IMG/VR virus record: IMGVR_UViG_3300042453_003699
Location: 1-64,000 of that record
Direction: 5' to 3' (one strand)
DNA length: 64,000 nucleotides
Origin: a virus
Part shown: positions 1,432-61,269 of the stretch, one piece after another
Position numbering within the stretch: position 1 is the first letter of the stretch
How the letters are laid out: each line of letters opens with the position of its first letter
Translations under genes and position numbers: made by a program
Notes under the pieces: model-generated
Database searches by the model: none
What the model was told of the DNA's origin: nothing
Seen by the model: the letters and a program-made list of their open reading frames with translations, nothing else

Positions 1432-1833
1432 TTACTTAGTCTTATTGAGTAGCTTTTGAGCAAGAGCGGGGTGGTTGGAGTAGAATGACTCATTCCTCAG
1501 AGCGGATGCCACACAACCACAGCTTTTTGATTTACCTGATAGTAGCTTGCTCGAACGGATCTTTCTTTCGTTTCCGCAGAAGCATCTACAAAGCCATAGG
1601 TAATTACCGTAGTCGTCCTTGCCGAACGGCTCAATAGCTTCAAGAAACCCAAACTTTGTTCCTACTTTGATCTTTGATCTTTCCTGAAGACGCTTGATTT
1701 TCAGACAACCGCAAGACTTCGCCTTGTAGAATTTGTCTTTGGTTGTTTTGATGGTTTGACCACACTCACACCGACAAACGATGGAATCGCCGTGCTTTTT
1801 GACTATGGTTAGTAGACCGTTTTTGGTTTTCAT
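1432..1833 (-). CDS. Protein with two CxC/SCGC zinc-ribbon repeats
   Basis: 133 aa. Two similar units are visible, each with a CxCxCG-type element followed about 20 residues later by KSCGC: CRCECG...KSCGC and CRCFCG...KSCGC. Such four-cysteine units are common in phage proteins as small zinc-bound DNA-binding modules, often near mobile nucleases, but no nuclease motif is present here. The start codon overlaps the stop of the upstream oxygenase gene (ATGA), so the two are probably co-translated. Function beyond nucleic-acid binding is not recognised. Confidence 0.7.
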   Translation of the reverse strand: MKTKNGLLTIVKKHGDSIVCRCECGQTIKTTKDKFYKAKSCGCLKIKRLQERSKIKVGTKFGFLEAIEPFGKDDYGNYLWLCRCFCGNERKIRSSKLLSGKSKSCGCVASALRNESFYSNHPALAQKLLNKTK

Positions 1834-2438
1834 GTAGGGTCTGACCTACGACCTCCAAATCGACACAGCGCAGAATACCGAACGGAAGAAACCTCCGTTA
1901 CCGCGTGCTTAAAAAACGGAGGGTCGTTGAGAATCACAACCAGTCTTCCGTAAACAGGCTCAACCTCTCCACAGAGCACCTCGTTTCTTGTGAACCGAAG
2001 TAAGCCCCCATGTTCCGGCTTCCATTCTTTGTTCAGGCATAGAGCCAGATTCAATTCCGCAGGGGCGGACTGTAAATCATTATGTGGAGCCAATCCCTGA
2101 CCCTTGTAGTATTTGACTAGGGACGGTTCCATCAGAAAAGGTCCACGCTTAGAGGTGTAGTGCCTTAAAAGAGGGGACTCATGTACCATCCCCCAGAATT
2201 GGTACACCTCCCTTGGGGCTTCCTTTATGGTTTCAAAAGCGATGCAGTTGGGTACGGATTCTGCGTTACCGTCAGGTCCGTAAAGACCGTCCGTGTCAGC
2301 TCGGGCAGAATCGAAGTCCAATTCGGTCATCAACCTGTACAGATTGTCAACCTGAGCAAACCCATTCAGATCGACATAATCAAACCCTTTTCCATACAGT
2401 TGCTCAAGATCAACTGGTCGAATCGTTTCGATGTCCAT
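1830..2438 (-). CDS. 2-oxoglutarate/Fe(II)-dependent oxygenase (prolyl-hydroxylase-like)
   Basis: About 202 aa. The iron-binding HxD is in APHNDLQ, the distal histidine in FFKHAVTEV, and the 2-oxoglutarate-binding arginine in SVRYSAL, the usual order for the P4H-type double-stranded beta-helix. A longer reading begins at 2474, but the ATG at 2438 is preceded by AAAAGGA at good spacing and is preferred. Substrate unknown: these enzymes hydroxylate proteins, nucleobases or small molecules. It is the most divergent of three such enzymes in the window (others at 48384 and 49695). Confidence 0.8.
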   Translation of the reverse strand: MDIETIRPVDLEQLYGKGFDYVDLNGFAQVDNLYRLMTELDFDSARADTDGLYGPDGNAESVPNCIAFETIKEAPREVYQFWGMVHESPLLRHYTSKRGPFLMEPSLVKYYKGQGLAPHNDLQSAPAELNLALCLNKEWKPEHGGLLRFTRNEVLCGEVEPVYGRLVVILNDPPFFKHAVTEVSSVRYSALCRFGGRRSDPT

Positions 2439-2485
2439 AATGTCCTTTTCTATGTAGTTTTGGAGTCCCCTCACCGTTTGTACTC

Positions 2486-17582: not shown

Positions 17583-18422
17583 ATGTCTATATTAGTATCA
17601 GGGGGCGCTTTGAAAAGATTCACAGGGGCGGTAAAGCCGTTTTTCAATCTGGATGGTCTGAATCTCACTATTAGATATGGCGAGGTTGTTTCTCTTGCGG
17701 AGTGGCAGACGAGTCACCCGAGCTTTCGTTTTGCCTTAGAGAATGGGTGGGTAGTCTCCGTGGATCGCAAAACTATCGTCTTCAACGCCGAAACCCCAAA
17801 GAAGCCAAGTAACGCTATGCGTTCTAAAAGAAAGAAATCCGCCGAAATCGTACAGGAGTTGCCAGAAAGCGGTTTAGATCCTGTGATTCTTCAAACAATC
17901 TTGGATAAGCAGGAGGGGTTCGTGCGACAAGCCCAAAAAACCTTTGAACGCCTAACGGCTCAGAAAAAAGAACCAGAGCAACCGACGGTAACGCCTGAGA
18001 TGTTTGCCTCGATGCTAGAGAACCAACGCAAGATGATGGAGATGCTCGAAAAAGAGAAACAGCAACCAGTGCCCCAAGCCCCCGCCTTGGATCAAACCGC
18101 AGTGCTGAATGCTCTCAAGCTCCTGACTAATGAGGTCAAGCGTCTTCAAGAATCAAAACCATCAGAAGCGTCTGTGAATACCGACCAGATTTTAGAGGGC
18201 GTAAAACAAGTAATGTCCCAGTTCAGTCCGTCCTCGGGTTCCTATAATGGAACTAAGAAAGACCCAAGTGGCTTTCAGATACGGGATGATTTTGAAGAGA
18301 AGTTCATTCCAAAAGTAGAAGACTTAGAAGTGAAGAACTCAAATATCGTAGCCCAAGAAAAGGACTCAGGAAGTGTTGAGGAGGCTCTCGCGGCTCTCCG
18401 AAAACTCAAGGAGAAGAAATAA
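17583..18422 (+). CDS. Coiled-coil protein paired with actin-like gene
   Basis: 279 aa, not recognised. A 75-residue N-terminal domain (FNLDGLNLTIRYGEVVSLAEWQ...FALENGWVVS) is followed by a basic patch (MRSKRKKS) and long Gln/Glu/Lys-rich helices likely to form coiled coils (FASMLENQRKMMEMLEKEKQQ). Its stop overlaps the next ATG (TAATG), so it is co-translated with the actin-like protein and may be its adaptor or cargo-binding partner. Confidence 0.65.
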   Translation: MSILVSGGALKRFTGAVKPFFNLDGLNLTIRYGEVVSLAEWQTSHPSFRFALENGWVVSVDRKTIVFNAETPKKPSNAMRSKRKKSAEIVQELPESGLDPVILQTILDKQEGFVRQAQKTFERLTAQKKEPEQPTVTPEMFASMLENQRKMMEMLEKEKQQPVPQAPALDQTAVLNALKLLTNEVKRLQESKPSEASVNTDQILEGVKQVMSQFSPSSGSYNGTKKDPSGFQIRDDFEEKFIPKVEDLEVKNSNIVAQEKDSGSVEEALAALRKLKEKK

Positions 18423-19468
18423 TGGAACAGTTGCAAAACCAATCAGTCCCCGCAAGCCCTGTCGCTAAGGATAAGAAGTATCTTGTTCGCGGGTTGGATA
18501 TTGGGACAGGTACAATCATCGCATCCTATCTTGATGAAGCCTCCAATACGGTAAAAAGCAAGCGGGTTCGCGACGCATTCGTATCTCTTGCGGTCGAACA
18601 GAAGCAGATGCTCAAGCTATCAAACATTTCGTACATTGAGGAAGGTGATCGAGTCATCATTGTCAGCGACGATGCCGCTAACATCGCCAACATCTTCAAT
18701 CAGCCTCTTCGCCGTCCTCTCAGTCGAGGAACGATCTCCCCTTCAGAGATCGAAGCACAGAAGGTTATCAAGCACCTCTTTCGTGAAGTTTTGGGGGAGG
18801 CGCAGGTGCCCGGATCGGTATGCGTGTACTCTATCCCCGCAAATCCGCTCGACGCAGATCAAGATGTAACTTTTCACGAAATGATTATGGGGCAAATGCT
18901 TGAAAGCCTCGGTTGGAAAGCAGTCGCCGCGAATGAAGCACAAGCCATCGTTTATTCCGAGTGCGCCGACACCATGTTCAGCGGATTTGCCATGAGCTTC
19001 GGAGCAGGGATGGTCAACTGCGCTCTTTCATACAAGTCTATCCCTCTTATCACTATGTCGGTTGCCCGCTCTGGGGACTATGTGGATGAGCAATCCGCCA
19101 AGGCTACTGGGCTGTCTCCTGCAAAAACTTGCGCTATCAAAGAGAAGGGCGTGGATCTTCTCGCCCCGAAGGGTCGCGAGCAAGAAGCAATAGCAGTCTA
19201 TTACAAGGCGCTCATCAAGTATGCTCTTACGAACTTTATCGAAAAGATTAAGTCCCAGAATGTCATGGCGCAGATCGACCTGCCTGATTCCATTCCGGTG
19301 GTAGTCGGCGGAGGCACATCGCTCCCCATCAACTTCCTTGCTGTGGTCAAGGAAGAGGTGAACCGCCTAAAGGGATTTCCGTTTTCTGTGACTGACATTC
19401 GCCATGCAAAAGACCCGCTGTATGCAGTTTCTAGGGGGCTTCTCATCATGGCTCAGAACCAAGACTAA
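18422..19468 (+). CDS. Actin-like ATPase (ParM/MreB/FtsA superfamily)
   Basis: 348 aa. Actin-fold nucleotide motifs occur in order: phosphate-1 GLDIGTGTIIASYLD (Asp26), a connect-type segment around NEAQAIVYSE, phosphate-2 FAMSFGAGMVNCALS, and adenosine VVVGGGTSLP. The length is normal for bacterial actins. It probably binds ATP and may polymerise. Known phage or plasmid actins segregate DNA or position it in the cell. Position next to virion genes is atypical, and the phosphate-2 loop lacks the usual DxG aspartate, so it may bind nucleotide without rapid hydrolysis. Confidence 0.75.
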   Translation: MEQLQNQSVPASPVAKDKKYLVRGLDIGTGTIIASYLDEASNTVKSKRVRDAFVSLAVEQKQMLKLSNISYIEEGDRVIIVSDDAANIANIFNQPLRRPLSRGTISPSEIEAQKVIKHLFREVLGEAQVPGSVCVYSIPANPLDADQDVTFHEMIMGQMLESLGWKAVAANEAQAIVYSECADTMFSGFAMSFGAGMVNCALSYKSIPLITMSVARSGDYVDEQSAKATGLSPAKTCAIKEKGVDLLAPKGREQEAIAVYYKALIKYALTNFIEKIKSQNVMAQIDLPDSIPVVVGGGTSLPINFLAVVKEEVNRLKGFPFSVTDIRHAKDPLYAVSRGLLIMAQNQD

Positions 19469-21298: not shown

Positions 21299-24049
21299 AT
21301 GAGTATTTTCAGTACATACGCCCCTCCCGGCGTATATGTTCAAACTTTGACGGATCTTACCGCCGCGAATATCGTTGCGGGGCTCCGTATGCCTGTGTTC
21401 ATCGGAGTTGGGCGCGAAAGCCTGACCCTGAGCAATTTCGAGATCATTCGCGGGTCATCGGCTACTTCCGACATCCGTATGCTTGGCGAAGATGTCAGTT
21501 CCCAGTTCACTGGGACCAACCGCCAGTTCACGGTCGCCAACTACCCCGTCGTTGACGGAAGCGGTCGCGCAGTTACTACCAATGACCCAAATGTTGTTTC
21601 TGTCACTATCGACGATCAGCCTACTGGCGTGATCGCTGTGGACGGAGCAAGCGGTCTTGTGACCCTTGGAGCAATTCCTCCGATGGGTTCGGTGGTCAAG
21701 GTGGGCTATTTCTTTAGCCGTAAAGACCTAAAAGTCACTGACGAAGACCTCAGCTATCAAGCTGACGGCTCAAATCTTGAGTTCAAGGTCAATAAGTCCC
21801 CGATTGTAAACGGAAACAACGGTGGTATTATTACTACCGAAGTATCTCGTGTGGTCGTTACAGTTGACGGAAGCGCCGTTGAAGTGGCTTCCCTTGATGG
21901 AATTCACGGCGTAATCACTCTCGCTTCGGCTCCTGCCGACGGCGCTGAGGTTCTGGCAACCTACTACACCAACACATTCCAAGACACTTACGATTACCTG
22001 CCACAAGACATCAACATCTTGTCGGTCAAGGCAATCGGCAACAGCCCCGGTCGCCAAGACTACTTCCTCGGACAAGACTATGTTGTTCAGAACGGGAAGA
22101 TCATTTGGGGATCTGCTTTCGACATCCGAAACGGGTCTGCGGCAACCGGAAACGCCTTCGGGTCTGAGCAGATTTCTGCAACCCTTGTGGACAATCGCTT
22201 CTTCATGAGGGAAGCAGCCGGAGCTTCCAACGGTACAAACAAGAAGTTCGTGCTTGAAGAAATCCCTGTCGCCGGAGACGGGCGCGATGTTCCAACCGAC
22301 GACCTTTCTAAGATTCAGGTTTATGTGGGAACAAGTGTGGCTTCCGCTTTTGCGGCAGGTCCGGTTGATGTGATGTCCCTTAATGGCGTTTCAGGCGAGG
22401 TTGTTCTCAAGAACGCTCCGTCTGCGGGTCATAAAGTGTATGCCACTTACTACTACAACATCCTTACCGATGACATTTTCACTGTCACGAATCGCGTGGC
22501 TTCTACCTTTTCGGTAACAGGGGAGTACGATGTTATCAGCGCAAATGGGGGTGCTTGTTTTGCGGGAGAGTTCTCTGAAGCTGACTCAACTGTAGCCGCA
22601 CCTGCTTTCGGAACGGAAGGAATTAAGTTTCCTGCCGATACTGCGGATGTGGTGACGGTGCCGGGCTATTCGGTGGAAGAAGATGTCACCCTTACCTTCA
22701 CAAGCGCCACTCAGTACACCGTCAGTAGCTCACTCGGAGCAGACGGTTCTTCTGGAACTGGTCATCTGAATCAAACCTATGTCGATGCGAAGACTGGTCT
22801 TCGTTTCACTATTCTTGCTCCCTCCACCTTCAACTATGCGGCTGGGGATGAGCTAGTTTGCTATGTGACAGGTCAGCAAGAGACAGGGATTCTTCCTAAA
22901 AAGATCATTCCTGGTCTCAATCTTGTCGTCTCGAATACAACGGGTGTCACCGTTGGTTCCACAGGTCTTGTTGAATGCTTCAATAAGACTGGAGGGGAGC
23001 CTTCCATTGGTGACTCGTACTTCGTGACTCTCGACTATGAAAAGACGGACTACAAGCCCGCTGTTTACACGAATTTCCGTGATGTGGTGACGGCTTTCGG
23101 TCCTCTCAATGTCGAAAACAGGCTGACTCTTGCGGCTTATCTTGCGTTCCTCCAAGGCGCTCCCGCTATTGCAATCTCTCAGGTGAAGAAAGCCTCCGGC
23201 GGACTTCAAGCTAGTGATGCGGCGTTCCTTGAGGCTATGACGGCTCTTGAGAATCCGCTCGAAGGTGATGTTCGTCCGAATATCCTTGTTCCTCTCACTA
23301 CTTCACGCACTGTTCTTCAGGCGGCTAAGAAGCACTGTGAGAAGGTTTCTAGCTCCCGCTATGCGATGGAACGAACCATGATGTTCGGTTTTGCTATCGG
23401 GACGCTTCCAGAGACCGCACAGGAATTCGCTAAGGCGCTCGCTTCCGAGCGTTGTTTGGGTGTCTACCCCGACGGCGCAGTGGTTGCGATCGAAGACGCT
23501 TTTGGGCGTGAGATCGAGAATACCGTGGATGGCAGTTTCTTGGCGGCGGCTCTTGCAGGTCTTGCTTGCAACCCTGTTTTTGATGTCGCTACCCCTCTGA
23601 CTCGTAAGAGTTTGACTGGGTTCCGCCGATTGTTCCGCCGTCTTGACGCGGTGCAGTCTAACCAAACAGCGGTTTCGGGTCTTACCGTTATGACGGAGAA
23701 CCAAGCGTCGATTCAGATTCGTCAGGCAGTTACGACTGATCCTAGCAACATTCTGACTCGGGAGCCTTCGATTGTGTTCATCAAGGATGAAATCCAACAG
23801 CTCACCCGTACAACTCTTGAACCGTTCATTGCAGAGAAGTTCCTTCCCGGTCGCCTCACCGACATCGAAATTGCTCTCGCAAATATGTTCAAGAACCAGA
23901 TTCAGGCGGAAAAAGTCGTTGCTTTCACGGGTATCAAAGCTACCCCAAGGGCAACTGACCCTACCGTTGCGGATGTCGTGGCTTTCTACAGCCCTGTATT
24001 CCCATTGAACTGGATTCAGGTCACTTATACGCTCCGTACTACGCTCTAA
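21299..24049 (+). CDS. Contractile tail sheath protein
   Basis: 916 aa. The C-terminal third has the sheath hallmarks: MFGFAIGTLPETAQEFA, a SLTGFRRLFRRLDAVQ stretch, SGLTVMTENQASIQIRQAVTTD and a helical FIAEKFLPGRLTDIEIALANM end. It is longer than typical sheaths because three tandem beta modules (about residues 60-140, 145-220 and 295-385), each ending P-G-V-Y-Y, are inserted in the outer region. CGT/CGC-biased arginine codons, a strong ribosome site and a terminator fit very high expression. Forms the contracting outer tube of the tail. Confidence 0.9.
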   Translation: MSIFSTYAPPGVYVQTLTDLTAANIVAGLRMPVFIGVGRESLTLSNFEIIRGSSATSDIRMLGEDVSSQFTGTNRQFTVANYPVVDGSGRAVTTNDPNVVSVTIDDQPTGVIAVDGASGLVTLGAIPPMGSVVKVGYFFSRKDLKVTDEDLSYQADGSNLEFKVNKSPIVNGNNGGIITTEVSRVVVTVDGSAVEVASLDGIHGVITLASAPADGAEVLATYYTNTFQDTYDYLPQDINILSVKAIGNSPGRQDYFLGQDYVVQNGKIIWGSAFDIRNGSAATGNAFGSEQISATLVDNRFFMREAAGASNGTNKKFVLEEIPVAGDGRDVPTDDLSKIQVYVGTSVASAFAAGPVDVMSLNGVSGEVVLKNAPSAGHKVYATYYYNILTDDIFTVTNRVASTFSVTGEYDVISANGGACFAGEFSEADSTVAAPAFGTEGIKFPADTADVVTVPGYSVEEDVTLTFTSATQYTVSSSLGADGSSGTGHLNQTYVDAKTGLRFTILAPSTFNYAAGDELVCYVTGQQETGILPKKIIPGLNLVVSNTTGVTVGSTGLVECFNKTGGEPSIGDSYFVTLDYEKTDYKPAVYTNFRDVVTAFGPLNVENRLTLAAYLAFLQGAPAIAISQVKKASGGLQASDAAFLEAMTALENPLEGDVRPNILVPLTTSRTVLQAAKKHCEKVSSSRYAMERTMMFGFAIGTLPETAQEFAKALASERCLGVYPDGAVVAIEDAFGREIENTVDGSFLAAALAGLACNPVFDVATPLTRKSLTGFRRLFRRLDAVQSNQTAVSGLTVMTENQASIQIRQAVTTDPSNILTREPSIVFIKDEIQQLTRTTLEPFIAEKFLPGRLTDIEIALANMFKNQIQAEKVVAFTGIKATPRATDPTVADVVAFYSPVFPLNWIQVTYTLRTTL

Positions 24050-48383: not shown

Positions 48384-49079
48384 ATGGATTTGCGCTCCTT
48401 GTTTCAGAAAGGGTATTCGGTAACAAAGATCGAAAAGTCGCTCGCTGACAAGGTTTTGGAGGCGATGCCACGGCAGACTTTCAAGTACCCCGACAAGATT
48501 ACCCAGAAAGAGCACCCTATGTATCATTCCGACACGGGTCTCTTTTATTGCGAATGCGTCACCCCTTTCACCTCAGATCAACCGCCCTTGATGGGTAGGG
48601 GATTTCATGAGGGGGATCTCGATTTTTTCACGGAGTTCTGGGGGCTGATTTCCTATTCGGAAACCTATAAGTGGTATCGGGAATCGTTTGGACCTGTAAC
48701 GAGGTTCTCAAAGCAGATGCACGATTTCAAAAAGGGGGAGTCTCTTGGGTTTCATTTTGACTACAAGGACGCAACGCCCTTCATCAACATACTGTATGTC
48801 GGGGACGATGACTTCACCGAAGGGGACGGAGGCTATTTAGAAGTTGGTAAGTGTCGGGTTACGGATGGTTTTGAAATCATCAGGGACTCGATTGAAGTCA
48901 CGGGTCGGATTTTCCCGAATCACGGAACCCTTGTGACCCTGAACAATATGACTCCGTACTTCGTTCACTCCGTGGCTCGGCTGATGTCCTCAAAAAAGAG
49001 ATACAGCTTCATCTGCCAGTTCGGTCACAAGGAAAACGAACTCTATTCCTTGATCTCTAAGGGTTGGAACATCCGCTAA
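48384..49079 (+). CDS. 2-oxoglutarate/Fe(II)-dependent oxygenase
   Basis: 231 aa. Iron ligands HxD in GFHFDYKDAT and His in YFVHSVARL, with the cosubstrate Arg near SSKKRYSF; a GDGGYLEVG turn and NHGTLVTLNN strand fit the P4H fold. Starts LRSLFQKGYSVTKIEKS, closely matching LRSFFKKGYCVAKVEKS in the 49695 enzyme, so the two are paralogues. Substrate unknown. Leaderless-type start. Confidence 0.8.
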   Translation: MDLRSLFQKGYSVTKIEKSLADKVLEAMPRQTFKYPDKITQKEHPMYHSDTGLFYCECVTPFTSDQPPLMGRGFHEGDLDFFTEFWGLISYSETYKWYRESFGPVTRFSKQMHDFKKGESLGFHFDYKDATPFINILYVGDDDFTEGDGGYLEVGKCRVTDGFEIIRDSIEVTGRIFPNHGTLVTLNNMTPYFVHSVARLMSSKKRYSFICQFGHKENELYSLISKGWNIR

Positions 49080-49093
49080 TACTGCCCTACTGT

Positions 49094-49708
49094 ATGAAAA
49101 AGATTTATCGTAGGCTAGTTCTTAGTCTCATGCAGTCTAGGCTGTATTCTTGGGCGTTACTCCATGTGATCCCTTACATTCGATTTACGACTTACTATAC
49201 CTCACTGCGTGGGTGGAAATACCAAAGGGGCTATCGACTTCTTCAAGCAGGAGACATCCTTCTAACGATTGATCGGAAAAAGCTGACGACGGTTCTGATA
49301 CCGGGCGAGTTCAGTCACGCCGCCTTGTGTGTAGACAAAGGGTCTGAATTTGAGATCGCTGAGATGACCCACTCCCACTTCACCCGAAGCACTTTTTTTG
49401 ACATCTGCAAGGAGTCAGACCGAGTTGTGATTCTCAGGTGTAAGACTTTCGATTACCCCTACATCCAAAAAGTAGTCGAGAAATGCCTGAGCTTTTCTGA
49501 AGCGAGTTACGACATCGGATTCGAGTTGGGTATCCAATCTCTCTATTGCTCGGAACTCGTGTACCAATCGGATTTTGAACGAAGGATTGGAGCTGACCTT
49601 ACTGACTTGGCAGGGTTAGGGAGACCCTACATTTCCCCGACAGGGCTTCGGCAAGCTGATAATGTCGAAGTGGTCTGGGACAGTGACTTGGAAGTTAAGG
49701 CTCAATGA
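49094..49708 (+). CDS. Permuted papain-like (YiiX/NlpC-P60) hydrolase
   Basis: 204 aa. Begins with a hydrophobic or amphipathic helix (VLSLMQSRLYSWALLHVIPY). The catalytic layout of the permuted superfamily follows: QAGDILLT, His75 in FSHAALCV, and Cys near 152 in YCSELVYQS. Relatives cleave peptide or acyl-amide bonds; membrane-associated lipid substrates are known. It is flanked by the two paralogous oxygenase genes. The ATG at 49094 follows the oxygenase stop; an upstream TTG reading is less likely. Confidence 0.75.
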   Translation: MKKIYRRLVLSLMQSRLYSWALLHVIPYIRFTTYYTSLRGWKYQRGYRLLQAGDILLTIDRKKLTTVLIPGEFSHAALCVDKGSEFEIAEMTHSHFTRSTFFDICKESDRVVILRCKTFDYPYIQKVVEKCLSFSEASYDIGFELGIQSLYCSELVYQSDFERRIGADLTDLAGLGRPYISPTGLRQADNVEVVWDSDLEVKAQ

Positions 49709-50354
49709 CATTTCGGATGTCTTTGAGTCTCGCTTTGGTGAGGGTGTGCTCGACATAACCCAAGTGAAAAAGGAGGGTATTCCTTTCCTTCTCCGCCTTC
49801 ACGGGGTCAACCCTGTGTTGGTTCGTGGGGTCTAGGTTGTTGATGACTACGAGGGTTCCGTGATTCGGAAGTATCCGATCGAATAGGGCGACTGAATCCC
49901 CGATAGCCCGACCCACTCCAAGCCAACCCCCATCTTCGTATGTAAACTCATCGGGCGTTAGATACAGACAACAGGTGATGGCGGTAGCGTCCAAGGAGTC
50001 GGTATGCCAAACCATACCGTCCCCGTTTCGGAATCGGTTAATCATAGGGCAACCCTGAGAAAACTCACCTAGAGCCTCTCTGATCGGCTTGAAGAAGGAG
50101 TGTACCTTGGCTTGGTTGTAGAAGTCGGTAAGCTCCTGCGGGGCATCCTTGTTCTCTGAGGGGATAATTTTACTGCTTTCCCATTTGGATATGAGGGGTG
50201 CGCGGAAGTTTTCACTCGCGTAAACCCCATCCCCTTCCACAAAAGGTTGCCTCTGGATCACCCCTAACAGGTAGTCGCTCATGGATTTTTCAACCTTAGC
50301 GACGCAGTAACCTTTTTTGAAAAATGATCTAAGGTTCAGATTTCCTTCAATCAT
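49695..50354 (-). CDS. 2-oxoglutarate/Fe(II)-dependent oxygenase, paralogue of 48384
   Basis: 219 aa. HxD in VWHTDSLDAT, distal His in NQHRVDPV, Arg in KERNTLLFHLGY, plus YEDGGWLGVG and NHGTLVVINN. Convergent with the hydrolase gene, overlapping by 14 bases, and divergent from the 2H phosphoesterase with only 22 bp between starts. Substrate unknown. Confidence 0.8.
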   Translation of the reverse strand: MIEGNLNLRSFFKKGYCVAKVEKSMSDYLLGVIQRQPFVEGDGVYASENFRAPLISKWESSKIIPSENKDAPQELTDFYNQAKVHSFFKPIREALGEFSQGCPMINRFRNGDGMVWHTDSLDATAITCCLYLTPDEFTYEDGGWLGVGRAIGDSVALFDRILPNHGTLVVINNLDPTNQHRVDPVKAEKERNTLLFHLGYVEHTLTKARLKDIRNVIEP

Positions 50355-50376: not shown

Positions 50377-51339
50377 ATGATAGGCAGAAAGGCACGCACG
50401 CTATCAAATACTTTGATCGCCTTCGATGCGGATTCCACCCAGTTCGAGAAGCTGAGTGATCGCGTCATTGCGTACCTTCGTGAAAACCAGATTATGGCTT
50501 TGCCCACGGACCGCCCGTTCCATGTATCCGTATCGTATATCTCGAATGCCCAAGAAGAGGACGATTTGATTGGACTCATGGAAGAGGCTGAGGGTGCGGG
50601 GAGGTTCCACAGTAAGACGCTTGTTCCGTTAAAAGGGAAAAATGGTAGTACCTACATAGCGTTGCAGGTGGAAGCCTCCCCAAAGTTTTTCAATTTCAAG
50701 AGGAAGGTGGACGACCACACCAAGTCTCGGGGCTTTGCTCGTGGGTTCAAGACCCACATAAGTCTTGCGAAATTTCCATCTTGGCAAATGCGACAGGGGT
50801 TGATGGAGGAGCTAAACAAAAAGTTTAATCCAGTATTTTCCATCAACTCTGACAGGGTACTTTTGTACGACCAGTCCCATAAGATTTACAGGTCAATGGA
50901 GGCTAACTTGGAACTTGCAGATCATCTCAAAGCTCACAACCGAATGAGCTACCGTTCGATGGAAACCATGATGCGGAAGATTTTGGACCGCAACACGAAA
51001 GGGTTCTTCAAAGACAATCACTGGGCTCCCGTCCACAAGATTCAAAACGAGCTTTCGGCTGAAATGATCGACATGGACCTGATGCGTTCCAAATACTTCC
51101 ACAACAAAGACTCCACCTCATCGGAACCTGACGGTAAAGAATGGGTTTTTGAGGTGTACTACGGGGATGAAGGTGGTTGGACCCTGCGCGTAGTCGCGAG
51201 TTTCGGTCCAAGCCCGACCAGCGACCCTATGTCGGTTTACGATTTGGTCTACACTCTGACATGGAGCAAAAAAATCAAAAAGGAAGCCTCTCTTTCTTCC
51301 AAGCTCCGTAAGATCGCGTCTTCCTTAAAAATGGGCTGA
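50377..51339 (+). CDS. 2H phosphoesterase family protein (possible anti-CBASS)
   Basis: 320 aa. The two HxS motifs of 2H phosphoesterases are present: FHVSVSYI (His49) and THISLAKF (His127), 78 residues apart. Family members open 2',3'- or cyclic-oligonucleotide bonds; phage Acb1 uses this fold to destroy CBASS signal molecules. The remaining half is unassigned, with a basic C-terminal helix (SSKLRKIASSLKMG). Specificity cannot be read from sequence. The start at 50377 is chosen over an upstream reading that enters the divergent gene. Confidence 0.7.
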   Translation: MIGRKARTLSNTLIAFDADSTQFEKLSDRVIAYLRENQIMALPTDRPFHVSVSYISNAQEEDDLIGLMEEAEGAGRFHSKTLVPLKGKNGSTYIALQVEASPKFFNFKRKVDDHTKSRGFARGFKTHISLAKFPSWQMRQGLMEELNKKFNPVFSINSDRVLLYDQSHKIYRSMEANLELADHLKAHNRMSYRSMETMMRKILDRNTKGFFKDNHWAPVHKIQNELSAEMIDMDLMRSKYFHNKDSTSSEPDGKEWVFEVYYGDEGGWTLRVVASFGPSPTSDPMSVYDLVYTLTWSKKIKKEASLSSKLRKIASSLKMG

Positions 51340-51845: not shown

Positions 51846-52985
51846 ATGGGAAAGGTAGCCGATCGGCTCCGACAGATAGCCAAAATAGCCGTAGCCAAGT
51901 ATGTCACTCGTTCGGGGGACTTACTGGTAGCCTACCCTAATAGAAGCGGTGCGACCGTTCTAGTCAAGAAATCAGGGACCAAATATGAGATCGTCTCCCT
52001 GAAGCAAAATAGGATTTGGGGGAGCTACGCAATCTCTTACGCTCAGGCAAAGGGCGTTGCGGGTATTGTACCCAACATCAGGCTTCGCGATGTCACCAAC
52101 GAAGCCGCTTTTCTTGAGGTTCTGGAAAACCCCAGTCGTGTTCTTAAAGGCGACTTGATGCAGGACATAGCACAGCTATCAAAAATACTTGGCAAGCTCA
52201 AGTATTACGAGGTGGTCGATGAGGCGAAAGCCCTCAAGCTCCTCACGCTCAAGGAAAGCATTCCCGTCGCCTATCTCAAGAGATACCTTCCAGAGCTTCC
52301 TACGGATCAGGAGGGGTCGCATCAGAAGATTGGACCGTTTGATGTCTCCTTTGACCACGAAAATGAGGGCGAGAGGCAAGCGATCGAAAACTTGATTGAA
52401 CGCGCTGTCCAGACGCTAGGGTCGGCGGGCTTCGGGGATTACCTGTACGGCAAGATATTTGTTGTAAGCAAACTCAAGGGGCGCACCGTAGCTGATTACC
52501 ACCCCTCAGACGATTCTATCCGACTCAGCCACAAGGCTAAGGGCAAAGAGGATTTGAGAACCTTCATTCACGAAATTGGGCACCGCATACTTAACAAGGG
52601 TGGCGCGGATTATCCCAAGATCAAAGCTAAGTTCCGTGAAGCAGTGCAGGGTTTTTCTCTTGAGGTCAAACCGGGTACGATCCTGAAAGACAAGAAAGAC
52701 GGAAAGACCTACAAATATGTGGGGCAATCTTTTCAAGCTCGTTCTACTCCATACAAGATTAAGCAGGTTTTGACTGAGAACGGCGAGACCATCGAACGAG
52801 GTGACTATAGGGTCAGCGCATTCTATTTCACGAACTTCGAGGGAGACTTTAAGATCAACGGCGAGTGGTTTCCCACTGCCTATTCCAAAACGAACCAAGA
52901 GGAATGGTTCTGTGAGATTCTGTCTTTCGCACTCACGAGGGGAGATAAGATTTTCCTAGATTTTATCAAGGAAGTCAGGAAGTGA
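51846..52985 (+). CDS. HEXXH zinc metallopeptidase
   Basis: 379 aa. Catalytic FIHEIGHRI near residue 242; a later NQEEWFCEILSFAL may supply the third Glu ligand of a gluzincin. The N-terminus (VADRLRQIAKIAVAKYV) resembles the N-terminal peptides of three other nearby proteins. The region 1-150 is unassigned. Might process virion proteins or attack host proteins after injection. Confidence 0.75.
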   Translation: MGKVADRLRQIAKIAVAKYVTRSGDLLVAYPNRSGATVLVKKSGTKYEIVSLKQNRIWGSYAISYAQAKGVAGIVPNIRLRDVTNEAAFLEVLENPSRVLKGDLMQDIAQLSKILGKLKYYEVVDEAKALKLLTLKESIPVAYLKRYLPELPTDQEGSHQKIGPFDVSFDHENEGERQAIENLIERAVQTLGSAGFGDYLYGKIFVVSKLKGRTVADYHPSDDSIRLSHKAKGKEDLRTFIHEIGHRILNKGGADYPKIKAKFREAVQGFSLEVKPGTILKDKKDGKTYKYVGQSFQARSTPYKIKQVLTENGETIERGDYRVSAFYFTNFEGDFKINGEWFPTAYSKTNQEEWFCEILSFALTRGDKIFLDFIKEVRK

Positions 52986-54298: not shown

Positions 54299-54613
54299 AT
54301 GAGCATCAGTTACAGGGTCGCGAAAAGATTCGAGTTACGGCGGGAGAAGCTAATAGCGGATTTCTTGGCGGGTATCGGGACTACCTCCGAGAGTGAGGCA
54401 GCGTTTTTCCTATCAAACGAGTTTGGGATCAATCCTTTTGATGCTCGTGATTTGATTGAAGAGTACCGCGAGTTGGAAAGTGCGGGGCACCCCTCCGAAA
54501 AAGATGTTCTCCCCCTCATTTCAAAATACGCTACCGCTGAAAAAGTAGCCTGTGGGTGCGGATGTGGTTGCGATTGCTACAATAAATGTGACTGCGGGTG
54601 CGGGTGTCACTGA
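54299..54613 (+). CDS. Protein with metallothionein-like cysteine tail
   Basis: 104 aa. The N-terminus has the shared peptide (SYRVAKRFELRREK), then two helical segments, and the last 20 residues are CGCGCGCDCYNKCDCGCGCH-like with nine cysteines, a plausible multi-metal cluster site. CAGGAGAA ribosome site; stop overlaps the alarmone-synthetase ATG (TGATG), so the two are made together. Confidence 0.65.
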   Translation: MSISYRVAKRFELRREKLIADFLAGIGTTSESEAAFFLSNEFGINPFDARDLIEEYRELESAGHPSEKDVLPLISKYATAEKVACGCGCGCDCYNKCDCGCGCH

Positions 54614-55638
54614 TGAAAAAGATAGCGCGTATTCACAAAATTGCTTGGTCGATCGCCCTTCGTTTTGCAAAGGTGAAAGACAAGTTCGAGATCACCGAGA
54701 GCGACCTTGTTAAAAACCCAAACCCCAAAGGGGTCAAGGAATGGGTTACCCAAGAATACGCGGATCAATTCCTATCAAAAGCAAAGAGTCCTAAGAGTCA
54801 TGGGGAAAAGCTCAAGCAGAACCCCCCTCAGCCATCGGACCCAGAGATGAGGTTTACACCTCCGGCGGGTAAAGAACGAGCTGAGTTTAACCGTGAGCAA
54901 CTGAAGAAGAGAGACCCTAGCTCCAAGAACAAGCACAAGTTCCGTGGTCTAAGTCCTGAAGAAACAAAACGAGCCGAAGAGCTTTCAAAAAAGAAGGGTT
55001 CCGAGTGTACCTTTGACGACATTGCTGAGTTTATAGGATTTTTTGAAAAGTCCTACGAAGAGTCCAAGAATTGGGCAAAAACCTTCCTCAAGGGTGGTGC
55101 AAAAACTTACAGCGGTCGTTGGAAGGACGAGCAGTCTCTTTTAGAAAAAATGAACGGTAAGTTTGCACACCGAACTCTTGAGACTGTCGGAGATGTAGTT
55201 GCAAATAGGTGCGTGTGCTCTTCGAGAGCCGATCAAGCGAAACTGGTCGATTACATCTACGAAAATTGCGTCATCCTTGAGCACGACAACATTGTCGATA
55301 ACCCTCGCGGGGACGGGTACAGCGCCCACCATTTTACTTTGGAAGCGCCTGACGGAAGGCTCATTGAGCTTCAAGTGAAAACTGAGAACCAACAGACCTT
55401 CTCGGGTTGGAGCCATGACGCGATTTACAAGAACAAAGAGGTCAGTGAAAACGGCAAGCCTAAGTACCCAGAGGTGGCGAAGTATGCCCTAGATTTGGGC
55501 AACTACATCAATGAAATTGACAGTGGTAAAGAACCATCTACCCCGCCCCCTCAACCCCCTGCTATACTGTTAAAGATCCTAAAGGGTCAAAATAAGAAAC
55601 CGTTTGATCTCAAGGAAATTAAGAGGGTTGGGGCATGA
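54613..55638 (+). CDS. RelA/SpoT-like alarmone synthetase
   Basis: 341 aa. Synthetase motifs are visible in order: SGRWKDEQSLLEKM (the R-x-K...S...K nucleotide-binding element), catalytic Asp in VGDVVANRCV, GDGYSAHHFTLE, and LIELQVKT with the second acidic residue, then WSHDAIYK. No HD hydrolase or TGS/ACT regulatory domains, as in small alarmone synthetases or toxSAS enzymes. It could make (p)ppGpp-like nucleotides or pyrophosphorylate another target. About 130 residues of charged N-terminal region precede it, beginning with a basic helix. Confidence 0.75.
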   Translation: MKKIARIHKIAWSIALRFAKVKDKFEITESDLVKNPNPKGVKEWVTQEYADQFLSKAKSPKSHGEKLKQNPPQPSDPEMRFTPPAGKERAEFNREQLKKRDPSSKNKHKFRGLSPEETKRAEELSKKKGSECTFDDIAEFIGFFEKSYEESKNWAKTFLKGGAKTYSGRWKDEQSLLEKMNGKFAHRTLETVGDVVANRCVCSSRADQAKLVDYIYENCVILEHDNIVDNPRGDGYSAHHFTLEAPDGRLIELQVKTENQQTFSGWSHDAIYKNKEVSENGKPKYPEVAKYALDLGNYINEIDSGKEPSTPPPQPPAILLKILKGQNKKPFDLKEIKRVGA

Positions 55639-55856
55639 AGAACTTTTTAGTGGTTAGAGACGAGCATAAGAATACTTTAGAAGTTTTGGAGTTTGATACC
55701 ACTGCGGATGCTCGGAAAGAAAAGCTATCTCGCAGGAAGAGCGGGCACAAAGGCGAACTCGTTCTTGCATACGGTTCAGACTTGAAATCGTTTCTTGAAA
55801 CTTTCACAGAGTATCGCCCCGAGAACTGGCGAGAGCTGATTAGAAAATCCCTTTAA
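55635..55856 (+). CDS. Small hypothetical protein, coupled to alarmone synthetase
   Basis: 73 aa, alpha/beta (NFLVVRDEHKNTLEVLEFD; DLKSFLETFTEYRPENW). The ATGA overlap with the synthetase stop suggests co-translation, so it may be an antitoxin or regulator; that is speculation. Overlaps the convergent 55840 gene by 17 bases. Confidence 0.55.
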   Translation: MKNFLVVRDEHKNTLEVLEFDTTADARKEKLSRRKSGHKGELVLAYGSDLKSFLETFTEYRPENWRELIRKSL

Positions 55857-60849: not shown

Positions 60850-61269
60850 ATGCAAACTACTGTTTATGTTTCTAATCTTCCCTACTCCGCCACAGACGCG
60901 GATCTCCAAACCTATTTCAGCGTCTTTGGAGCCATCAAGACCATCAAAATGCTAACCGATAGGGAGACAGGTCGCCCTCGCGGTATCGCCTTTGTTGAGT
61001 ATCTTGATGAAGCCACGGCTACGAACGCGATTGAAGGTACGGACAAGCGGGATTTCATGGGTCGCGCTTTGAATGTTTCTCTTGCTCGTCCAAAAGGACA
61101 AAAGCCTGAGCGCACTATTCGCGAGGCTCGCGCCCCGCGTGAGTATTCTCAGGATAACTACCGTGAGTATTCACAGCCGGAAATGTCTTGGCACGATCCG
61201 AACTTCGACAGTTACAATAAGCGCGATCGTCGTGATCGTCGCGATAATCGTCGTAAGTACGATCGCTGA
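60850..61269 (+). CDS. RRM RNA-binding protein
   Basis: 139 aa. A complete RNA recognition motif covers residues 3-80: RNP2 VYVSNL, RNP1 RGIAFVEY, with a TDRETGRPRG loop. The C-terminal tail is Arg/Asp/Tyr-rich (YNKRDRRDRRDNRRKYDR). Resembles bacterial (cyanobacterial-type) RRM proteins. CGT/CGC codons suggest high expression. It could affect mRNA stability or translation in the infected cell. Confidence 0.9.
   Translation: MQTTVYVSNLPYSATDADLQTYFSVFGAIKTIKMLTDRETGRPRGIAFVEYLDEATATNAIEGTDKRDFMGRALNVSLARPKGQKPERTIREARAPREYSQDNYREYSQPEMSWHDPNFDSYNKRDRRDRRDNRRKYDR

What the first reader, a model, noticed from the sequence alone, without database searches (positions are those of the whole stretch)
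54613..55638. Phage-encoded RelA/SpoT-like alarmone synthetase
All expected synthetase elements and both catalytic acidic residues appear to be present with no hydrolase domain. Made together with a cysteine-rich protein and a small downstream ORF, it could raise (p)ppGpp, modify host tRNA or nucleotides like toxSAS enzymes, or act as superinfection exclusion. The small coupled downstream gene may be its regulator.
Basis: partly seen in the sequence, partly recalled or inferred. Interest (0 to 1): 0.8.

Follow-up and report, generated by a model that had tools for sequence, protein, structure and literature searches.

The report
Phage toxin-antitoxin pair, alarmone-synthetase type
A large tailed phage carries an enzyme related to bacterial stress-signal (alarmone) synthetases, and the small gene overlapping its end looks like the antitoxin that holds such enzymes in check, so the pair is probably a toxin-antitoxin or anti-competitor module rather than a lone synthetase.

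Summary
Confirmed: window 54613-55638 (+) encodes a 341-aa protein with a RelA/SpoT synthetase domain at residues 168-276 (Pfam E 1e-13). All catalytic positions are intact, no hydrolase domain was found, and the fold matches RelQ, RelP and CapRel. It lies in a 78-kb fragment of a contractile-tailed phage. It is translationally coupled to a Cys-rich gene upstream (TGATG) and to a 73-aa gene downstream (ATGA).

New here: the 73-aa product is very probably a stand-alone version of the antitoxin (pseudo-zinc-finger) domain fused to the toxin in CapRel. It is a clear outlier among 346 small phage ORFs (hhalign 25.6, next 18.7), and 1 of 5000 shuffles scores as high. It keeps the second, essential tyrosine of the YXXY plug (F57-T-E-Y60), and its partner keeps both adenine-clamp arginines (R169, R199). 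The likeliest reading is therefore a bicistronic toxSAS toxin-antitoxin pair, comparable to Phrann gp29/gp30 and CapRel.

The synthetase domain itself scores best against RelA-like domains fused to or near phage head proteins (MuF, protease, portal), so virion delivery is a live rival. A proposed virion-targeting N-terminal peptide failed its control. The product (ppGpp, ppApp or tRNA) cannot be decided from sequence. It is a new variant of a known kind.

The parts
54613..55638 (+). RelA/SpoT-type pyrophosphokinase (putative toxin), 341 aa; synthetase domain residues 168-276, family-specific C-terminal tail about 279-325, N-terminal extension 1-160 of unknown role
   Evidence: Pfam PF04607 E 1e-13; catalytic residues invariant; Foldseek CapRel/RelP/RelQ
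55114..55440 (+). RelA_SpoT catalytic domain
   Evidence: profile match in six-frame search, E 8e-16
55635..55856 (+). 73-aa putative antitoxin, pseudo-zinc-finger (CapRel C-terminal domain) family; FXXY plug F57-T-E-Y60
   Evidence: hmmsearch 8.2 bits, 1 of 5000 shuffles as high; hhalign E 1.1e-4, top of 346 small ORFs; profile family hits CapRel 310-370 at E 6.6e-7; predicted beta-beta-alpha-beta-alpha order
54299..54613 (+). 104-aa upstream coupled gene with Cys-rich C-terminus (CGCGCGCDCYNKCDCGCGCH); role unknown
   Evidence: TGATG overlap with the synthetase gene; no Pfam match, no convincing PHROGs match and no phage homologue

Best explanation
The locus is a bicistronic toxSAS-type toxin-antitoxin pair carried by a large contractile-tailed phage. 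The 54613 gene makes a catalytically complete RelA/SpoT-fold 3'-pyrophosphokinase. It would transfer pyrophosphate from ATP to a 3'-OH acceptor: a purine nucleotide or the tRNA CCA end. The translationally coupled 55635 gene makes a CapRel-type pseudo-zinc-finger antitoxin. Its F57-T-E-Y60 segment would plug the ATP-donor pocket between R169 and R199, as YXXY does between R79 and R116 in CapRel. While the antitoxin is bound the cell is unharmed. When it is displaced or lost (by another phage's protein, or by host shut-down), the enzyme drains or poisons nucleotide or tRNA pools and stops growth, excluding a competitor. Shown here: ORFs, domain, catalytic residues, fold, gene coupling. Supported by statistics: the antitoxin relationship. 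Inferred: inhibition, trigger, product and ecological role.
For: Synthetase domain and intact catalytic residues. Downstream 73-aa protein against a 12-member profile of the C-terminal domain found fused to RelA_SpoT in PADLOC PDC-S33-type proteins: 8.2 bits, first of all ORFs from four phages, 1 of 5000 shuffles as high; hhalign score 25.6, E 1.1e-4, next best of 346 small phage ORFs 18.7. That domain is CapRel's antitoxin domain: the profile hits CapRel 310-370 at E 6.6e-7, and a PDC-S33 protein from Nostoc matches CapRel along its length at E 7.5e-43. Y60 aligns with CapRel Y355, V43-L44 with V338-L339, and R169/R199 with R79/R116 (residue roles from PMC9712102 and PMC11782079). The single-sequence model of the small protein gives TM 0.51 to the FaRel2 antitoxin (8pu2), the highest query TM among the listed hits, although E is 2.5. 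An unrelated viral contig (L022) carries the same two-gene order, toxin then antitoxin domain.
Against: The antitoxin assignment is remote: plain BLASTP to the L022 partner fails, PADLOC does not call the small protein, hhalign probability is only 56%, and the first tyrosine of YXXY is F. The toxin domain scores better with head-associated phage RelA domains than with PDC-S33/CapRel-type synthetases (99.5 against 25.7 bits). The gene is coupled to a Cys-rich protein that, to my knowledge, known toxSAS operons lack.
Confidence: 0.62

Rival explanations
1. It is a virion-delivered effector: a stand-alone relative of the RelA-like cargo domains fused to MuF, prohead protease or other head proteins. 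It would be packaged in the head, injected with the DNA and used to reset host nucleotide metabolism; the small gene would be its immunity protein in the producing cell.
For: Profile of head-associated RelA domains built without the query gives 99.5 bits, against 51.5 for small alarmone synthetases, 36.6 for long RSH and 25.7 for PDC-S33; the C-terminal tail, not used to find those loci, alone scores 11.5 bits against a shuffle maximum of 5.8. Members lie in MuF fusions beside portal and protease (L016, L018), a protease-like fusion (L017), or between portal and capsid in Pro-Nvie1. BFVD fold matches include large polyvalent phage proteins. Neighbouring genes look like a 2H phosphoesterase and a HEIGH metallopeptidase, other solo parts of polyvalent proteins (PMC5512222).
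Against: No MuF or other head domain in this protein; no head gene was recognised beside it. The N-terminal VA.R[FYW] peptide proposed as a virion signal is enriched only in this record (post hoc p 0.004) and not in the related 485-kb phage (p 0.43). Tree tests do not resolve placement (AU p 0.37-0.55, long branch).
Confidence: 0.25
2. It is a metabolic helper: a (p)ppGpp synthetase made during infection to slow host transcription and translation, with no toxin-antitoxin logic; the small gene is unrelated.
For: Domain resembles genuine (p)ppGpp synthetases RelQ/RelP in profile search (E 1e-22) more than toxSAS CapRel/FaRel2 (E about 4e-7 to 6e-7); the record also encodes an IMPDH/GMP reductase.
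Against: The adjacent gene's relationship to the CapRel antitoxin domain would be coincidence (top of 346 ORFs).
Confidence: 0.1
3. A decayed or inactive remnant whose RelA fold is kept for binding only.
For: Long branch in the tree (2.22); S instead of R after the G-loop tyrosine (GYSAHH against GYRSxH).
Against: Every catalytic position is kept, frame intact, tight gene coupling.
Confidence: 0.03

Closest known systems
PhRel:ATphRel (mycobacteriophage Phrann gp29/gp30)
   Same: Phage-encoded (p)ppGpp-synthetase-like protein plus a small neighbouring partner thought to hold it inactive; defends against other phages (PMC9262239)
   Different: Phrann is temperate and mycobacterial; no sequence of that pair was compared here. 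Here the record is a large myovirus fragment and the toxin domain resembles head-associated RelA domains
CapRel (CapRelSJ46; PADLOC PDC-S33 matches this type)
   Same: Toxin domain with the R79/R116 clamp (R169/R199 here) and a pseudo-zinc-finger antitoxin domain with a plug tyrosine (Y355; Y60 here); CapRel is a top fold match
   Different: CapRel is one polypeptide, here two genes; toxin domains only distantly alike (25.7 bits); first plug Tyr is Phe; a 160-residue N-terminal extension is extra
FaRel2:ATfaRel2 (tRNA-pyrophosphorylating toxSAS)
   Same: Bicistronic; antitoxin of about 73 residues; model TM 0.51 to ATfaRel2
   Different: Fold match not significant (E 2.5); substrate here unknown
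Apk2 and other MuF polymorphic toxins with RelA-like domains
   Same: Phage RelA-like domain family associated with head proteins
   Different: Not fused to MuF here; no Aph1-like hydrolase recognised next to it; (p)ppApp specificity unknown
Nitrososphaera prophage Pro-Nvie1 gene 6
   Same: Closest named phage relative found: 26% identity over 160 residues including the tail ...DSGE
   Different: Lies between portal and capsid genes; lacks the N-terminal extension, and no antitoxin-like gene was found near it

Membership tests
RelA/SpoT synthetase superfamily | Whole synthetase domain above curated cut-off | tested here: met
   51.9 bits against 27, model positions 1-112 of 113
RelA/SpoT synthetase superfamily | Catalytic residues and fold | tested here: met
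Small alarmone synthetase (no hydrolase, no regulatory domains) | Single synthetase domain without HD domain | tested here: met
   but a 160-residue N-terminal extension is unusual
toxSAS toxin-antitoxin pair | Adjacent cognate antitoxin | tested here: met
   Remote but significant similarity of the 55635 protein to the CapRel antitoxin domain; function untested
toxSAS toxin-antitoxin pair | Toxicity neutralised by the partner | not testable with these tools
   Needs expression
CapRel / PDC-S33 | Toxin domain closest to CapRel-type synthetases | tested here: not met
   25.7 bits, lowest of four profiles; tree unresolved
CapRel / PDC-S33 | Fused antitoxin domain with YXXY | tested here: not met
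   Separate gene; FXXY
Head-associated phage RelA family | Sequence match including the C-terminal tail | tested here: met
   99.5 bits, tail 11.5 bits against 5.8 maximum in 2000 shuffles; the loci were found with part of the query, so partly circular
MuF polymorphic toxin / Apk2 | N-terminal MuF domain | tested here: not met
   No MuF match
Virion-delivered effector | Present in the virion | not testable with these tools
   Indirect peptide test failed its control

The most novel reading that the evidence does not exclude
A large phage loads a toxSAS enzyme into its virion to hit the next host at entry, while making a CapRel-type antitoxin to protect the cell that builds the virions: a link between head-associated RelA cargo and intracellular toxin-antitoxin modules.
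Probability: 0.17. Interest if true: 0.78.

Novelty: new variant of a known kind. Interest (0 to 1): 0.52.

Why it matters
toxSAS pairs have been described mainly as bacterial or prophage defence. A split pair in a large contractile-tailed phage, joining a head-type RelA domain to a CapRel-type antitoxin domain, would show that the antitoxin domain moves between different synthetase lineages. It would also provide a simple two-gene system for testing whether such phages use nucleotide poisoning against rivals or hosts.

Tried and rejected
Single-sequence and full-alignment searches of viral contigs found no relatives; a short core alignment was needed. A tree could not place the query. The idea that recurring N-terminal VA.R[FYW] peptides mark virion proteins was rejected for lack of enrichment in LR745208 and absence in the sister phage G002. 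With only four members the antitoxin-domain profile was inconclusive (2.8 bits, 26 of 976 shuffles as high); the 12-member profile decided it. MAFFT pairwise alignment of the two small proteins misregisters them and was not used. BLASTP between them gives nothing. No relA-like domain was found in the related phages Tunturi_5, LR745208 or the two sister fragments. Promoter and terminator scans were no better than shuffles.

Full report
Observation. The ORF at 54613-55638 is real and correctly described. Its residues 168-276 match nearly the whole Pfam RelA_SpoT model at E 1e-13. No hydrolase domain is found. Relatives from viral contigs show that the catalytic set is invariant (R169, K171, K179, D194, R199, Y236, H240, E252, Q254 among others). 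The AlphaFold model is good in the core and poor in the first 85 residues; Foldseek finds CapRel, RelP and RelQ with probability 1.00. The upstream stop overlaps the start (TGATG) and the downstream start overlaps the stop (ATGA), so three genes are coupled.

Setting. The window is part of a 78,033-base virus record. A tail sheath at 21299-24049 is 79% identical to that of two other IMG/VR fragments and resembles those of large myoviruses, such as Tunturi_5 and a 485-kb uncultured phage. The sister fragment G002 is syntenic up to window position about 47.6 kb; its last 5.5 kb differ and no RelA domain was found in it. The synthetase gene therefore lies in a stretch not shared with the sister fragment.

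Which RelA family. A search with a short core alignment found eight viral loci. Two are giant proteins in which a RelA domain follows a weak MuF match next to portal and maturation protease genes (L016, L018). One is fused to a segment that looks like a capsid protease (L017), two contain HPRDxxGxF-type segments (L015, L019), and the Nitrososphaera prophage relative lies between portal and capsid. A profile of this set (seven of the eight loci plus Pro-Nvie1; L022 groups with PDC-S33) without the query scores 99.5 bits on the query, against 51.5 for small alarmone synthetases, 36.6 for long RSH enzymes and 25.7 for PDC-S33. Part of this is circular, because the loci were selected with residues 221-278: outside that core the N-terminal half scores 16.3 bits against 18.2 for small alarmone synthetases. 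The C-terminal tail, however, is independent and supports the link (11.5 bits; best of 2000 shuffles 5.8). The tree does not resolve the query.

The small downstream gene. One of the eight loci, L022, has an 85-aa gene right after its RelA gene. Its relatives are C-terminal domains of longer RelA_SpoT proteins in bacteria and plasmids, the type PADLOC lists as PDC-S33. A 12-member profile of that domain puts the window's 73-aa protein first among the ORFs of four phages, with 1 of 5000 shuffles as high. hhalign gives score 25.6 and E 1.1e-4; the next of 346 small ORFs scores 18.7. The same profile hits CapRel residues 310-370 in the PDB at E 6.6e-7, and a PDC-S33 protein matches CapRel along its length at E 7.5e-43. 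So the domain is CapRel's pseudo-zinc-finger antitoxin domain. In CapRel, Y352 and Y355 (YXXY) block the adenine site between R79 and R116 (PMC9712102), and in ATfaRel2 the second tyrosine is essential (PMC11782079). The window protein has F57-T-E-Y60, and its partner has R169 and R199 at the clamp positions. Its single-sequence model has strand-strand-helix-strand-helix order, and ATfaRel2 (8pu2) appears at TM 0.51, though with E 2.5.

Mechanism and rivals. The most economical reading is a bicistronic toxSAS pair, toxin first and antitoxin second. By analogy with Phrann gp29/gp30 (PMC9262239) and CapRel (PMC9712102), its likely use is exclusion of other phages, but this is inference. Virion delivery is the main rival: RelA/SpoT, 2H and metallopeptidase domains are known parts of co-injected polyvalent proteins (PMC5512222), MuF proteins carry RelA-like toxins (PMC5576092, PMC12226406), and possible solo 2H and metallopeptidase genes lie close by. 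No direct evidence places this protein in the virion, and the N-terminal peptide idea failed its control. The product is open: the family profile is nearer to RelQ/RelP than to CapRel/FaRel2, but specificity cannot be read from sequence; in Apk2, swapping synthetase motifs did not change it (PMC12226406).

Novelty. RelA-like phage proteins, bicistronic toxSAS pairs and MuF RelA toxins are all known. New here are the combination of a head-type RelA domain with a CapRel-type antitoxin domain, the split arrangement, and the setting in a large contractile-tailed phage.

Noticed in passing
window 18422-19468 (+): Full-length match to Pfam Volactin (actin-like; E 2.9e-65), 96% identical in the sister phage G002 although most other shared proteins are about 45-79% identical; sits close upstream of the tail sheath.
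   Followed up: no
window 50377-51339 (+): Possible 2H phosphoesterase (HVSV and HISL motifs; Pfam 2_5_RNA_ligase2 E 0.004, below cut-off); no phage homologue. Could be an anti-CBASS-like or RNA end-processing enzyme.
   Followed up: partly
window 51846-52985 (+): Putative metallopeptidase with HEIGH motif; relatives in the 485-kb phage LR745208 and inside a 2,183-residue open frame next to the terminase of Virus Rctr197k.
   Followed up: partly
record 67393-68403 (L002:7393-8403): Phage-encoded IMPDH/GMP reductase (E 1.7e-94) in the same record as the alarmone-type synthetase; both concern purine nucleotides.
   Followed up: no
window 48384-49079 (+), 49695-50354 (-): Two paralogous 2OG-Fe(II) oxygenase-like genes (one above the Pfam cut-off, one below), distantly related to 1830-2474 (-).
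   Followed up: no
window 60850-61269 (+): Small RRM RNA-binding protein (E 6.7e-21), unusual for a phage.
   Followed up: no
window 54299-54613 (+): Coupled upstream protein ending in CGCGCGCDCYNKCDCGCGCH, possibly metal-binding; no relatives found in the phage collection.
   Followed up: partly
L016:5028-9485: Giant MuF-type phage protein with a HAD-like domain, a RelA domain, a second weak RelA-like match (E 0.016) and a metallopeptidase-like HEFMHH motif in one chain.
   Followed up: no
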